Shown one piece after another: positions 35,156 through 38,644 of a DNA stretch of 39,828 nt. The stretch is from Pelagibius sp. Alg239-R121 (lineage in GTDB: Bacteria > Pseudomonadota > Alphaproteobacteria > Kiloniellales > Kiloniellaceae). The translations under genes and the position numbers were made by a program. The stretch is taken from contig NZ_CAMZOF010000019.1 of NCBI RefSeq assembly GCF_947331435.1, positions 1 to 39,828 on the forward strand, given 5' to 3'. Position 1 is the first letter of the stretch. Each line of letters starts with the position of its first letter. The notes beneath the pieces are model-generated. The model saw only the letters and a list, made by a program, of their open reading frames with translations, was not told the origin of the DNA and ran no database searches.

Positions 35156-36283
35156 TTACCCCTTGCGCGGCCGGATCCGCACCAGGTCGTCGAGCACGCC
35201 ATCCATGCCGTTTCCGACGATGACGTTGCCGACCTTTTCGGAGACCTTCTCCAAGGCCTCCAGCTCCTTCAGCCGCAACAGGATGGGGTTGTCCTCCATC
35301 AGCTTCGCGGTGTTCAGGAGCGACCGCGTCGCGGCGGTCTCCTCCCGCCGCTTGATGACGTTGGCCTGCGCGGTCTTCTCCGCCTCGATGACCCGGTTCA
35401 TCAGCTCCCGCACGTCTCCGGGCAGGATGATGTCCTTCACACCGACGGAGGGGACCTGCAGTCCCGCGTCGCCGAGCTTTGGCAGCAGCAACTCAGCCAC
35501 CGCCGCGTTGATGCCCAGCTTGTCGCCGAGCACCTCTTCCAGCGTCCGGGTGCCGATGACCTGCCGCAGAGCGAACTGCAGCTCCTTGTACAGGAAGTCC
35601 CGCAGGTCCGCGGTCAGTGCCACAGCCTTGACCGGGTCCGCGACCCGGTAGACGGCAGTGACGTTCGCCCGCAGGCCGATCCGGTCCTTGGTCAGGACCT
35701 CCTGGCCGGTGACCTCCAGAGTCTGCAGCCGCAGATCGAAGGTCACGACGTCGATGCGCCGCAGCGCCTTTACAAAGGCGTACCGGCCCGGCGTGAGCTG
35801 CTTAACCAGCACGCCGTCGACATAGAGCAGACCGACATGGTCGGAGACCACCTCGGCCACCGCGACCAGTTCCCGTGCACCCAGCCGCACCAGGGGGGCG
35901 ACCAGCCGCTCGGGCAGCTCGATGTCGGTCACCGCGTCAAGCACTTCGACGGTCATATCCCGCAGCCGCCTGGCGTAAAACGCCACGCTGCGCGGTGCGA
36001 CCAGACCGGCCAGCTTGCCGTCGGCGTACACCAGCCCCATCTCGCCGTCGCCCATATCGGCGGCGAGGAAGTGGGTTTCAACGACCTGCCGGTGGGTCAG
36101 GTAGAGCGCGGCCAGCGCCGGTTCCTTCACGGGCATGGCCCGCAGGTCCAGCTTGATCACTTCAAGCGTGCCCCGTCCCCGCAGAAAGCGGTACACGCCC
36201 GGCTCCAGCGCCTTCTCGAAAGCCCGGTTCCGATACAGGAGACCGAGCTCGTAGTCTGCAATCTTCTCGGTCTTGTAAACCAT
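35156..36283 (-). CDS. Slipin (SPFH/Band 7 domain) family protein
   Basis: The 375-residue protein starts at the ATG reading MVYKTEKIADYELG, with AAAGGA eight bases upstream; an in-frame extension to 36580 has no support. The SPFH domain is visible as LGLLYRNRAFEKALEPGVYR and DLRLQTLEVTGQEVLTKDRI, then NVTAVYRVADPVKAVALTAD and LDDLV near the end. No clear N-terminal membrane helix is seen, unlike typical stomatins. The long N-terminal part doubles the ALEPGVYRF motif (second copy QLTPGRYAFVKAL). Slipins are known from bacterial RNA-repair operons with Ro and tRNA-like RNAs. This gene has two tRNA-like sequences upstream. Confidence 0.85.
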   Translation of the reverse strand: MVYKTEKIADYELGLLYRNRAFEKALEPGVYRFLRGRGTLEVIKLDLRAMPVKEPALAALYLTHRQVVETHFLAADMGDGEMGLVYADGKLAGLVAPRSVAFYARRLRDMTVEVLDAVTDIELPERLVAPLVRLGARELVAVAEVVSDHVGLLYVDGVLVKQLTPGRYAFVKALRRIDVVTFDLRLQTLEVTGQEVLTKDRIGLRANVTAVYRVADPVKAVALTADLRDFLYKELQFALRQVIGTRTLEEVLGDKLGINAAVAELLLPKLGDAGLQVPSVGVKDIILPGDVRELMNRVIEAEKTAQANVIKRREETAATRSLLNTAKLMEDNPILLRLKELEALEKVSEKVGNVIVGNGMDGVLDDLVRIRPRKG

Positions 36284-36696
36284 CGAACTGTTCCTTTCTT
36301 TTTTCTCTTCTCTTCTTCTTTTTGTTTTCTGTCTTTTCTCGTCCTTCGCGAGGGACCGGAACCGAAGAAAGTTCCAATAAAATAAAATCAGGAATACCGG
36401 AAGAACCCCGGCGCCGGTTGCTGGACGGTCCCGGCGTTCTCCCTCCGCCGTCCGGGCGGGCCTCCGGGGTGCCGTCCGCTGGACGGCTACGCTCCGAAGA
36501 GCGAAACCTTCCAACGGCACGGCGTGCCGGAAACCCTTGCGGGCGATGTCGGAGAGCGCAGTGGAATCGCACGGAAGCAATCCGATACCTGGCCTGCACC
36601 CTGCGCAGAAGCGAACGGCAAAACCATCCTCTACCGGCCGGGCCGGCCTGGCGCTCTTCCGGCATCCTTCGTCTTTGATCAGCGTGATAGGCTGAG
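36284..36696. other. Slipin leader region with a polypyrimidine tract and a UUCG hairpin
   Basis: Positions 36291-36344 form an almost pure pyrimidine tract on the plus strand, so the mRNA reads polypurine just before the slipin ribosome site. At 36490-36503 the minus strand reads CGCTC-TTCG-GAGCG, a perfect UUCG-tetraloop hairpin. Several GGACGG/CCGTCC copies at 36422-36486 could pair. No gene is seen. This would be the spacer transcript between the tRNA-like RNAs and slipin. Confidence 0.5.
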
Positions 36697-36766
36697 TGTG
36701 ATGGAGGGATTCGAACCCTCTACACCTAGATTATGAGTCTAGTGCTCTACCCAATGAGCTACATCG
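36697..36766 (-). tRNA. tRNA-like sequence B, CAU anticodon, defective acceptor stem
   Basis: D arm (GCTC/GAGC), anticodon stem CTAGA/TCTAG with loop CTCATAA (anticodon CAT, U33 kept), and T arm GAGGG/CCCTC with loop TTCGAAT are all intact. The acceptor is not: only GATG/CATC, the inner four pairs, form. The outer positions fall on the CCA of the preceding tRNA-like sequence and do not pair. No CCA follows it. A truncated tRNA-Met/Ile-like gene or a tRNA-like non-coding RNA are both possible. Confidence 0.5.
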
Positions 36767-36845
36767 TGGTGCCAAACACGGGGATCGAACCCGCGACCTC
36801 CGGACATCGTCTGCCCGGCGCTCTCACCATCTGAGCTAGTTCGGC
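36767..36845 (-). tRNA. tRNA-like sequence A with encoded CCA and abnormal anticodon loop
   Basis: The acceptor stem GCCGAAC/GTTTGGC is complete (7 bp with one G-U), and an encoded A-CCA end follows. D arm GCTC/GAGC and T arm GCGGG/CCCGT with loop TTCGATC are normal. The anticodon arm is not: CCGGG/TCCGG leaves a 9-base loop (CAGACGATG). With a sixth C-G pair it leaves a 7-base loop AGACGAT lacking U33. No anticodon can be assigned with confidence. The next tRNA-like sequence begins immediately at its CCA. Confidence 0.5.
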
Positions 36846-37438
36846 CAACCAGGTACCCTGGAGCTCGATACACGCACAGCATATTACGAACGCCGAACGC
36901 GCCGGTCGGATATACAGAATCCGAACCATAGAGCGGGCATGCCGGCCAACGCCGGCATTAAAGTACCAAACGAATGAAGGCTCCTGATCCTCTCGCGAGG
37001 GATGCCTGTTGTCGTTCTTTATGTCTGTAAATGTTTCATGATCGTCCTGCCTCCGTTGCTTTGTTGAGCCGGAGCAGGACACGCGCAGAACGCGGGTCTA
37101 GACCCCGGTTGTTGTGGCCCAGTTTGCTGGGCAGATAGATAGTTCCCGTATCATTTGCGGGCTTTCTCTTGCGCGTTGACCGGCGGCGTTATTGCGACCG
37201 GGAGGCAGGGTATATGCCGGAACACATTCCTAAATCAACCGCTAATCTGTACGCGTTCGGCGAAAAGACCGATTGGGAAAGATGGAGCGCGCTGGGTTTG
37301 AGGAATATTGCGCGAGGGAGGGGAGCGACTGTCTGTTGATTACTTGGCGCGCGAGCGACTGCGGCGGGACAAGCAGGCTGCCTGCACCGAACGTAGGGAT
37401 TGTTTCTTGGGCAGGTTTGGGTCAATAGACTAGCGGTT
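36846..37438. other. Intergenic stretch with hairpins, no protein gene seen
   Basis: Perfect hairpins are present at 36939-36958 (ATGCCGGC-CAAC-GCCGGCAT) and about 37117-37133 (GCCCAG/CTGGGC), and a perfect palindrome GGGTCTAGACCC at 37094-37105. A minus-strand sigma-54-like element is at 37204-37219. The stretch would be the leader of a minus-strand transcript carrying the tRNA-like sequences. The right part, 37220-37438, shows nothing recognisable beyond the weak start region of the MFS gene. Confidence 0.45.
37204..37219 (-). promoter_or_regulatory. Possible sigma-54 promoter for the tRNA-like/slipin transcript
   Basis: On the minus strand the sequence is CGGCATATACCCTGCC, with GG and GC separated by exactly ten bases and the GGCA and TGC cores of the -24/-12 consensus. 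It lies about 360 bases upstream of the first tRNA-like sequence. Sigma-54 control with RtcR is known in RNA-repair operons. A chance match is possible. Confidence 0.25.
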
Positions 37439-38644
37439 ATGACCAAGCCCGTTCCCGCATCTCCCTCTCGCGAGCTGATCGTTCAGGCGTTGATCCTTTC
37501 TCTCGGGGCTGCGGTCGCGCTGGGCTTTTCGCGCTTTAGCTATGCTCTGTTGCTGCCGGCCATGCGCACCACACTGGATTGGAGCTATGCCGAAGCGGGG
37601 AGCCTGAACACCGCCAACGCGCTGGGCTATCTGATCGGAACACTCACCACGGCGCGGCTGGTGGCGCGCGTGGGGATCGGGCAGTGTTTCTGGGTCGCTT
37701 TGCTGTTGACCGGCGCGGGCCTCTTTGCCACGGGTCTGACGGAAAACTTTGTCGCCTTGCTGAGCATCCGGCTGCTCACCGGCATTACCTGCGCCTACAC
37801 CTTCATATCGGGTGCCACCCTGGCGTCGCATCTGGCCAAAGACGGTCACGGTGGCCTGGTTCTCGGCCTCTATTTCGGTGGCGTCGGCACCGGCATATTT
37901 CTGGCCGGCCTGGGATTACCGCAGGTGATGGAATACGACGCCGGGCTCTGGCCCTATCCATGGCTGGCGATGGGCATCCTCACCTTTATTGCGGTTTTTG
38001 TGGCCCGCCCCGTCGCACTTAAGGTGCCCACCGATAACCCCCATGCCGCAAAGGCAGCGCCCTGGCGCTTCCCGACCCAGCTCTTGCCATCGCTCACCGC
38101 CTACGCTCTGTTCGGCCTGGGTTACATCAGCTACATGACCTTCATCATTGCCTACCTGCGCTCGGGGGCGGTGTCGACCTGGGCCATCACGGCATTTTGG
38201 CTGCTGCTCGGCGTCAGTGTCTTTGCGTCCGCTTTCGTGTGGCAGGGCCTGCTCGACAAAGCCAAGGCCGCAGGCTATGCGCTGGCAAGCGTCCTGGCGG
38301 TCGTCGCGCTCGGGACGGCGCTGCCGCTGGTTTCCACCTCGCTTGTCGCCGTGCTGATCTCGGGCGTGCTGTTCGGCGGCGCATTCCTGACCGTGGTCTC
38401 GGCGGTGACCAATATCGCCAGATGTGCTCTGCCAACCCATGCCTGGGCCGGCGGCATCGCCTTGTTCACACTGCTGTTTTCCATTGGCCAGACCATCGGC
38501 CCGATGGTCGCCGGCGTCTTGGCCGACCGGTCGAACTCCTTCACCTCCGGCTTCGCCCTGTCAGCAAGTTGCCTGGCGATCGCCGCGGCTCTGGCGCTGA
38601 TGCAAAAGGCGCAGGATGCCCCGCAATCCGAGATCGTCCGCTGA
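37439..38644 (+). CDS. MFS transporter, YbfB/YjiJ family
   Basis: The 401-residue protein starts at ATG 37439, shortly before the first helix LILSLGAAVALGFSRFSYAL. About twelve hydrophobic segments follow. The typical ALGFSRFSYALLLPAMRTTL, the AEAGSLNTANALGYLIG segment and a second-half LFGLGYISYMTFIIAYLRSG match the YbfB/YjiJ group of the major facilitator superfamily. It probably exports or imports a small solute with proton coupling; the substrate is unknown. The ribosome site is weak (tagcgg). It is convergent with the small exported protein gene, 22 bp apart. Confidence 0.9.
   Translation: MTKPVPASPSRELIVQALILSLGAAVALGFSRFSYALLLPAMRTTLDWSYAEAGSLNTANALGYLIGTLTTARLVARVGIGQCFWVALLLTGAGLFATGLTENFVALLSIRLLTGITCAYTFISGATLASHLAKDGHGGLVLGLYFGGVGTGIFLAGLGLPQVMEYDAGLWPYPWLAMGILTFIAVFVARPVALKVPTDNPHAAKAAPWRFPTQLLPSLTAYALFGLGYISYMTFIIAYLRSGAVSTWAITAFWLLLGVSVFASAFVWQGLLDKAKAAGYALASVLAVVALGTALPLVSTSLVAVLISGVLFGGAFLTVVSAVTNIARCALPTHAWAGGIALFTLLFSIGQTIGPMVAGVLADRSNSFTSGFALSASCLAIAAALALMQKAQDAPQSEIVR

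What the first reader, a model, noticed from the sequence alone, without database searches (positions are those of the whole stretch)
36697..36845. Two abutting abnormal tRNA-like sequences upstream of a slipin gene
On the slipin strand, two tRNA-like folds abut with no spacer. A has a full acceptor stem and encoded CCA but an anticodon loop of 9 bases, or a 7-base loop lacking U33. B has normal D, anticodon (CAU) and T arms but an acceptor stem of only 4 pairs, whose outer positions overlap the CCA of A. They sit about 410 bases before a slipin gene in the same direction. Slipins occur in RtcR/RNA-repair operons with Ro protein and tRNA-like YrlA RNAs, and RtcR responds to damaged tRNA. Here the repair genes rtcB, rtcA and rsr are absent, so a reduced or different slipin/tRNA-mimic system is possible. 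The link to RNA repair is inference.
Basis: partly seen in the sequence, partly recalled or inferred. Interest (0 to 1): 0.75.

Follow-up and report, generated by a model that had tools for sequence, protein, structure and literature searches.

The report
tRNA-mimic RNA beside a slipin gene
Two tRNA lookalikes and a bare anticodon hairpin form one conserved RNA in front of a cage-type (slipin) protein gene, seen in several bacterial phyla and often near a tRNA-repair ligase gene; its anticodon letters change unusually fast between relatives, as bait for tRNA-cutting enzymes might, but that role is untested.

Summary
In detail: two abutting tRNA-like cloverleaves lie 412 nt upstream of a slipin (SPFH/Band-7) gene, A with an abnormal 9-nt anticodon loop, B with a 4-bp acceptor stem. 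They are not decayed tRNAs. Rfam finds the pair upstream of the slipin in 12 of 12 relatives, and a tRNA-like module was parsed in 121 of 126 upstream regions from proteobacteria, cyanobacteria and planctomycetes. Stems covary strongly.

New here: a bare anticodon stem-loop follows B in 88 of 121 loci against about 0.1 expected; 12 of 36 distinct loops equal real tRNA anticodon loops. In close pairs B's triplet differs about three times as often as four-fold sites (22/48 against 514/3246). rtcB lies in the same locus in 16 of 18 gamma and 32 of 35 Firmicutes loci, but in no alpha, cyanobacterial or planctomycete locus. RtcR is absent in 12 of 13 and Ro in 13 of 13 genomes tested.

Best reading: a tRNA-mimic RNA of a Ro-less RNA-repair module, probably bait for anticodon nucleases. 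That mechanism is inference; leader-sensor and vault-like RNA-cage readings remain open.

The parts
36862..36975 (-). 5' conserved domain of the RNA (ATTCGTTTGGTACTTT box, G/C-rich hairpins)
   Evidence: conserved between 13 alpha loci; helices in the RNAalifold consensus of 10 loci of the own family
36767..36845 (-). tRNA-like module A: full acceptor stem, encoded CCA, 9-nt anticodon loop
   Evidence: anticodon stem of A modules 91.7% paired against 55.8% shuffled, with a parser that favours pairing
36696..36768 (-). tRNA-like module B: D, anticodon (CAU) and T arms, only 4 acceptor pairs
   Evidence: covariation on alignment A3; variable triplet
36679..36695 (-). bare anticodon stem-loop mimic TCAGC-CTATCAC-GCTGA
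   Evidence: helix 5
36391..36667 (-). 3' structured domain closed by a long-range helix (36650-36667 with 36391-36409)
   Evidence: conserved in alpha loci; RNAalifold consensus
36358..36375 (-). hairpin GGAAC...GTTCC between RNA and slipin
   Evidence: read from the alignment of alpha loci and present in the consensus
35156..36283 (-). slipin gene (SPFH/Band-7 protein with N-terminal beta repeats)
   Evidence: Pfam PF01145 97.8 bits; orthologues; AlphaFold2 model and Foldseek

Best explanation
The segment encodes a conserved structured RNA of a Ro-less, RtcR-less RNA-repair module. It displays anticodon stem-loops (tRNA-like B and one or two bare hairpins) on or beside tRNA-like bodies, next to a gene for a slipin of the cage-forming SPFH family. 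Most likely it acts as bait: tRNA-cutting toxins (anticodon nucleases) bind or cut the mimic loops instead of, or before, essential tRNAs; the cut ends are of the kind that RtcB re-seals, so the bait can be reused; slipin holds or concentrates the RNA. Shown here: the RNA fold, its conservation and position, the fast change of the triplets, exact matches to real tRNA loops, and neighbourhood or co-occurrence with RtcB. Inferred: transcription, cutting, re-sealing, slipin binding, and the toxins themselves.
For: Recurrence: two tRNA hits in each of 12 of 12 relatives with upstream DNA; the thirteenth (G026, split gene) shows the same pair by ARAGORN (one hit) and by eye; a tRNA-like module in 121 of 126 upstream regions. 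An RNA model (B plus third hairpin) over 385 alpha genomes put three slipin loci on top (94.3, 89.8, 87.0 bits); the first two were training rows, the third is new, and a second new slipin locus scored 72.1 bits. Covariation: 99.8% of cells paired, score 0.576 against 0.173 shuffled and at most 0.122 slid. Third hairpin in 88 of 121 loci against about 0.1 expected. 12 of 36 distinct third-hairpin loops, 71 of 101 occurrences, are exact real tRNA loops (permutation mean 6.0; 68 of 20000 reach 12). B triplet: 22/48 differences against 0.158 at four-fold sites, p about 1e-6. rtcB in the locus in gammas and Firmicutes; strong RtcB 12/14 against 11/44, p 8e-5, or 12/14 against 16/44 with weak matches, p 0.002; own RtcB sits with RlaP, Hen1 and Pnkp. 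Anabaena slipin alr0740, rtcB and a 26-tRNA array are repressed by TrcR, and are reported there as rising under chloramphenicol (PMC10272220, passages read).
Against: No expression, cleavage or binding data exist for this RNA. A's loops are mostly not anticodon-like: 1 of 11 distinct 7-nt loops is real, and in the Xanthomonadaceae set 32 of 57 are 4 nt long. In that set only 27 of 51 distinct 7-nt B loops keep U33, and its third-hairpin matches alone do not beat permutation (4128 of 20000); nor do B of alphas (2355) or B of that set (1339). Cyanobacterial loops scarcely vary (3 distinct in 8 loci). RtcB was not found in two of 14 slipin genomes, G010 (98% complete) and G018 (86%). rtcB is in the locus in 0 of 15 alpha, 0 of 8 cyanobacterial and 0 of 3 planctomycete loci. 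Four-fold sites in GC-rich genes may themselves be constrained, and a mutational hot spot is not excluded.
Confidence: 0.42

Rival explanations
1. Leader sensor: the RNA is the 5' leader of the slipin (and rtcB) transcript; when an anticodon nuclease cuts one of the displayed loops, the leader refolds or is processed and slipin/RtcB output changes.
For: In the loci examined the RNA is upstream of slipin and on the same strand; in alphas conserved structure runs on close to the slipin start; no terminator-like site on this strand in 36200-37450.
Against: In 6 of 8 Nostoc loci a TrcR-consensus site lies between RNA and slipin, so slipin may have its own promoter there; in 32 of 35 Firmicutes loci rtcB is upstream of slipin, so a leader could not control it there; no sigma-70-like promoter was found in the scanned region (0 found, 0.4 expected), which leaves the transcript start unknown.
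Confidence: 0.25
2. Structural RNA of a slipin particle (vault-like or Y-RNA-like): tRNA-like modules recruit tRNA-handling enzymes to an SPFH cage, as YrlA recruits PNPase to Rsr; the anticodon loops vary for another reason.
For: The slipin model matches stomatin and HflK/C and, over about 430 alignment columns, Major Vault Protein (best E 3.9e-10); the Firmicutes RNA resembles YrlA (33.2 bits); Ro is absent, so slipin could replace it.
Against: Does not by itself explain triplets that differ more than synonymous sites or exact real anticodon loops. The MVP match has TM 0.37-0.45 and rmsd 15-16, stomatin ranks above it, and MVP itself contains an SPFH-like part (recalled).
Confidence: 0.2
3. 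Spare or stress tRNAs: the genes make working tRNAs used when tRNAs are damaged, like the Anabaena trn array.
For: In 7 of 8 Nostoc loci ARAGORN calls two adjacent CAU tRNAs, in the eighth CAU and AAU; Anabaena slipin and a tRNA array share a repressor.
Against: In alphas and gammas B is held to a 4-pair (in some rows 5-pair) acceptor with covariation in 46 of 46 rows, and many A loops are 4-6 or 8-9 nt.
Confidence: 0.08
4. Decaying tRNA pseudogenes left by an integration event.
For: Abnormal loops and stems.
Against: Conservation at one position across phyla, strong covariation, and two new slipin loci found by the RNA model.
Confidence: 0.02

Closest known systems
YrlA / bacterial Y RNAs of rsr-yrlBA-rtcBA RNA-repair operons (Rfam RF02553)
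   Same: tRNA mimic encoded with rtcB; the Firmicutes form has the YrlA arm order (T arm, capped acceptor, D arm; 33.2 bits in one locus)
   Different: No Ro/Rsr gene and mostly no RtcR in the genomes tested; anticodon arms are present and variable, whereas the YrlA tRNA-like domain is described as resembling D, T and acceptor arms (PMC8394870, passages read); the window RNA scores 18.6 bits against a cut-off of 69
RtcR-controlled rtcBA operon (E. coli, Salmonella)
   Same: RtcB ligase; response to tRNA damage as the theme (PMC7790460, passages read)
   Different: RtcR absent in 12 of 13 genomes tested and not found in any of the 95 stretches; extra slipin and RNA
Anabaena TrcR regulon (trn array, rtcB, slipin alr0740)
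   Same: slipin, RtcB and tRNA genes under one stress repressor; TrcR-like sites near Nostoc slipins
   Different: 26 tRNA genes on a plasmid versus two tRNA-likes and hairpins; TrcR was not looked for in proteobacteria here; the Anabaena locus itself was not examined
Eukaryotic vault (MVP, TEP1 with TROVE, vault RNA; recalled)
   Same: MVP-like slipin fold next to a structured RNA
   Different: Only a partial fold match of the protein; no particle shown; no TROVE protein found
Phage tRNAs that counter anticodon nucleases (recalled, no call)
   Same: extra tRNA bodies offered against tRNA cutters
   Different: those are whole tRNAs; here the loops sit on bodies that look non-functional, in a chromosomal repair-linked locus

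Membership tests
Functional tRNA | 7-bp acceptor stem and CCA end | tested here: not met
   B has 4 acceptor pairs and no CCA; A has both in the window, but CCA is not kept in all relatives (read)
Functional tRNA | 7-nt anticodon loop with U33 | tested here: not met
   A: 9-nt loop, or 7 nt without U33; B meets it in the window
YrlA Y RNA (RF02553) | score above Rfam gathering cut-off (69 bits) | tested here: not met
   18.6 bits in the window; 33.2 bits in Firmicutes L107, the one Firmicutes locus tested at low threshold
YrlA Y RNA (RF02553) | Ro/Rsr (TROVE) partner in the genome | tested here: not met
   0 of 1 own, 0 of 12 others; of 14 control genomes Deinobacterium chartae rang
RtcR-regulated RNA-repair operon | RtcR activator | tested here: not met
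   absent in own genome and in 11 of 12 others; E. coli control rang
RtcB-associated RNA-repair module | rtcB in the locus | tested here: inconclusive
   16 of 18 gamma and 32 of 35 Firmicutes loci and 1 of 1 Desulfobacterales locus, but 0 of 15 alpha, 0 of 8 cyanobacterial, 0 of 3 planctomycete; not in this window
RtcB-associated RNA-repair module | rtcB in the genome | tested here: met
   own genome yes; 12 of 14 slipin genomes
Slipin / SPFH | Band_7 domain and SPFH fold | tested here: met
Anticodon-nuclease decoy | is bound or cut by an anticodon nuclease and protects cells | not testable with these tools
   needs a wet experiment
Vault-like particle | cage assembly containing the RNA | not testable with these tools
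   only a partial fold match of the protein

The most novel reading that the evidence does not exclude
An apparently unnamed, widespread RNA class displays rapidly diversifying anticodon loops, is bound by an MVP-like slipin cage and is re-sealed by RtcB: a reusable, evolving bait library against tRNA-cutting toxins, related to Y RNAs but freed from Ro.
Probability: 0.3. Interest if true: 0.95.

Novelty: new variant of a known kind. Interest (0 to 1): 0.83.

Why it matters
Why RtcB loci carry slipins and tRNA mimics is an open question. If this RNA is bait, bacteria would be evolving anticodon loops as targets rather than decoders, and a slipin/RtcB/RNA partnership that spans phyla would have an explanation. 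The reading can be tested directly, because each genome names the loops to try. Even if the bait idea fails, a conserved RNA with two tRNA-like domains, matched in Rfam only as plain tRNA, whose anticodon triplets differ more than synonymous sites, needs explaining.

Tried and rejected
Pseudogene reading: contradicted. A as an anticodon mimic: not supported. Sigma-70 promoters and terminators near the RNA: no promoter-like site, two terminator-like sites on the other strand against 1.3 expected. RNA model R1 as a stand-alone detector: it rings in 385 of 385 alpha genomes at E <= 1e-9 because ordinary tRNAs fit it. Of the 30 loci fetched, 4 lie upstream of a slipin (two of them training rows) and the other 26 are ordinary ARAGORN tRNA genes. 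Automated parsing of a Firmicutes anticodon hairpin failed (only 2 seven-nt loops, neither real), so the hairpin AGAC-CTGTCAA-GTCT seen by eye in some rows is not counted as evidence. A GNRA cap on the permuted acceptor was found in 13 of the 20 loci where a cap could be parsed, of 35 Firmicutes loci. The VIA-align look at the vault match was not available. Prior art: ten searches; no title or abstract start in their listings describes a slipin with a tRNA-like pair. The listings are capped, and the papers were not read except passages of PMC10272220, PMC9938897, PMC7790460 and PMC8394870. Burroughs and Aravind 2016 and Santamaria-Gomez 2021 are not held; Chen 2014 and Sim and Wolin 2018 were not looked up. 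Prior mention there cannot be excluded.

Biases to weigh. The parser picks the best-pairing stem, which inflates paired percentages; 'B' there means the last module before slipin, and in at least two loci with a 4-nt loop (L174, L192) this is probably an A module. The 46 rows were taken from 55 with a 7-nt B loop and a third hairpin, so helix 5 is paired by selection. The loci are one family, so counts are not independent; 90 of the 101 were read upstream, one of them for 226 nt only. The disjoint-pair test uses 20 pairs, of which 16 had 7-nt loops on both sides and 4 were dropped for loops of different length. Real loops came from two genomes only. The control (0 of 16 loci with an ARAGORN tRNA within 1.5 kb) holds 15 distant SPFH genes and one 45-residue remnant of the true slipin (L029, genome G007). 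G007 was counted as lacking the slipin; counting it as having it gives 12/15 against 11/43, p 0.0004.

Full report
CHECK. ARAGORN and Rfam confirm two abutting tRNA-like sequences at 36696-36845 on the minus strand; the abnormal features (9-nt loop in A, 4 acceptor pairs in B, encoded CCA in A) are read from the sequence. The slipin (PF01145) starts 412 nt downstream.

RECURRENCE. The slipin was sought in 58 genomes, the own one and 57 relatives: 14 including the own have a strong match (E <= 1e-70). In 12 of 12 relatives fetched with upstream DNA (L006-L017), Rfam finds two tandem tRNA hits upstream on the slipin strand. The thirteenth (G026) has its gene split over two contigs; its upstream part shows the same arrangement by eye, and ARAGORN calls one of the two. 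A scan of a collection of 84,980 species genomes gave 80 loci, the best of 99: by record title and similarity 15 alpha, 18 gamma, 8 cyanobacterial, 3 planctomycete, 35 Firmicutes, 1 Desulfobacterales. A family-wide search around Pseudoxanthomonas mexicana gave the slipin in 101 of 297 genomes; upstream DNA of 90 was read. A tRNA-like module was parsed in 121 of 126 upstream regions (alpha 18/18, other gamma 6/7, cyanobacteria 8/8, planctomycetes 3/3, the family set 86/90). A control of 16 other SPFH loci, 15 of them distant, had no ARAGORN tRNA within 1.5 kb. In the other direction, a covariance model of B plus the third hairpin over 385 alpha genomes put three slipin loci on top (94.3, 89.8, 87.0 bits): two are training rows, the third is new (slipin 40% identical), and a second new slipin locus scored 72.1 bits; the other 26 of 30 fetched loci are ordinary tRNA genes.

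STRUCTURE. On 46 aligned rows all five helices hold: 99.8% of cells pair, 16 of 23 pairs change on both sides, covariation score 0.576 against 0.173 shuffled and 0.018-0.122 slid. B's acceptor keeps its 4 pairs in every row, with a fifth possible in some. RNAalifold on 10 loci of the own family shows cloverleaf A, cloverleaf B, the third hairpin and a 3' domain closed by a long-range helix. At Rfam's cut-offs only tRNA is matched in the window and in 24 related loci.

ANTICODON LOOPS. In alphas, 16 of 18 B loops have 7 nt: 14 distinct, 13 different triplets, T33 in 13, A37 in 12. In the Xanthomonadaceae set: 68 of 86 have 7 nt, 51 distinct, 30 triplets, T33 only in 27. A bare hairpin with a [CT]TNNNA[ACT] loop lies within 90 nt 3' of B in 88 of 121 loci, against a summed expectation of about 0.1 from shuffles. 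Without any loop pattern, 101 hairpins with 7-nt loops occur within 60 nt in 98 of 121 loci; 12 of 36 distinct loops (71 of 101 occurrences) exactly match one of 56 anticodon loops of real tRNAs from this genome and P. mexicana, for example CTGTCAC = Asp, CTTTCAC = Glu, CTGTAAA = Tyr. Column permutation gives 6.0 on average and reaches 12 in 68 of 20000; with triplets kept and flanks shuffled 7.8, in 537 of 20000. For B, 13 of 70 against 7.2 (281 of 20000). For A there is no such signal (1 of 11). In subsets the test is weak: third hairpin of the family set 4128, B of that set 1339, B of alphas 2355 of 20000; the third hairpin of alphas holds (231 of 20000).

RATE. In disjoint nearest pairs, 22 of 48 triplet positions differ while 514 of 3246 four-fold sites of the slipin gene differ (p about 1e-6); 4 of the 20 pairs differ in loop length and were left out. 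Over all pairs of the family set, triplets differ 0.30, 0.41 and 0.68 at four-fold divergence 0.09, 0.12 and 0.28, while the anticodon stem differs 0.03, 0.05 and 0.20. Selection for change or a mutational hot spot could cause this; relaxed constraint alone should not exceed the synonymous rate, unless four-fold sites here are themselves constrained. In cyanobacteria the loops hardly change.

RNA REPAIR LINK. tblastn with E. coli RtcA, RtcB and RtcR over 95 stretches: among the 80 loci, rtcB lies in the same locus as slipin in 16 of 18 gamma (after slipin in 15, before it in L067), 32 of 35 Firmicutes (before slipin), and the Desulfobacterales locus (with rtcA), and in 0 of 15 alpha, 0 of 8 cyanobacterial, 0 of 3 planctomycete; RtcR in none. 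In the 58 genomes, strong RtcB (E < 1e-100) occurs in 12 of 14 slipin genomes and 11 of 44 others (p 8e-5); with weak matches 12 of 14 and 16 of 44 (p 0.002). Within the own family 8 of 10 and 0 of 13, or 3 of 13 with weak matches. The own RtcB lies with RlaP, Hen1 and Pnkp domains. TROVE is absent in 13 of 13 genomes and RtcR in 12 of 13. In Anabaena, slipin alr0740, rtcB and a tRNA array are repressed by TrcR, and the paper reports, from an earlier study, their rise under chloramphenicol (PMC10272220, passages only); 6 of 8 Nostoc loci carry TGTAGTAT, the TrcR-like site named there, between RNA and slipin (no chance expectation computed).

FIRMICUTES FORM. Within 700 nt upstream of slipin, 29 of 35 loci show two T-arm motifs. 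In the aligned loci the first is followed by a hairpin-capped acceptor and a D arm, the order of a circularly permuted tRNA; Rfam YrlA scores 33.2 bits, E 2.5e-5, in the one locus tested. This suggests kinship with Y RNAs but is below the curated cut-off. A gene family found in 31 loci nearby gives, for the one member tested, a weak WYL match just under the cut-off (21.7 against 21.8 bits).

SLIPIN. The AlphaFold2 model (mean pLDDT 85, pTM 0.61) has beta repeats, an SPFH domain and a long helix. Foldseek's best matches are stomatin, HflK/C and QmcA; Major Vault Protein matches over about 430 columns (best E 3.9e-10, TM by query 0.37-0.45, rmsd 15-16), so only parts superpose. A sequence profile finds stomatin, QmcA, HflK/C and flotillin, not MVP.

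MECHANISM. I commit to bait/decoy (about 0.42): displayed loops that look like tRNA anticodon loops, fast turnover, and a ligase for the expected cut ends. Transcription, cutting, re-sealing and slipin binding are inference. A cleavage-gated leader (0.25) and a vault- or Y-RNA-like particle (0.20) fit much of the same evidence and may combine with it.

NOVELTY. tRNA mimics in RNA-repair operons are known (YrlA), so I file this as a new variant; the anticodon display with fast triplets, the slipin partner and the absence of Ro set it apart. Ten searches of the held library listed nothing that describes it by title or abstract start; key papers were not held or not read.

Noticed in passing
L103:474-5377: Desulfobacterales locus slipin-rtcA-rtcB with six ARAGORN tRNA genes close behind.
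   Followed up: no
L126, L100, L099, L124 just behind slipin: Firmicutes loci carry tRNA genes about 0.1-0.2 kb after the slipin end; may be mere context.
   Followed up: no
L068:7213-8016, also L080, L088: Lysobacter and Pseudoxanthomonas loci have an extra ORF of 256-290 aa between slipin and rtcB; the L068 one has no Pfam match.
   Followed up: partly
L069, L077, L084: In three Nostoc loci the CAU pair is about 2.5 kb upstream of slipin and a separate tRNA-like with loop TGTATCG lies near the slipin.
   Followed up: no
L132 (G000:C7:317000-336900): Own genome has an RtcB-RlaP-Hen1-Pnkp RNA-repair cluster; ARAGORN finds no tRNA-like there.
   Followed up: partly
G000:C2:720504-720564, C15:116674-116734, C1:389604-389674: Three further weak tRNA-like hits (about 37 bits) in the own genome, two of them at contig ends.
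   Followed up: no
G059:C7:515244-515792: Lysobacter sp. cf310 has a full RtcR match besides the slipin/RNA locus.
   Followed up: no
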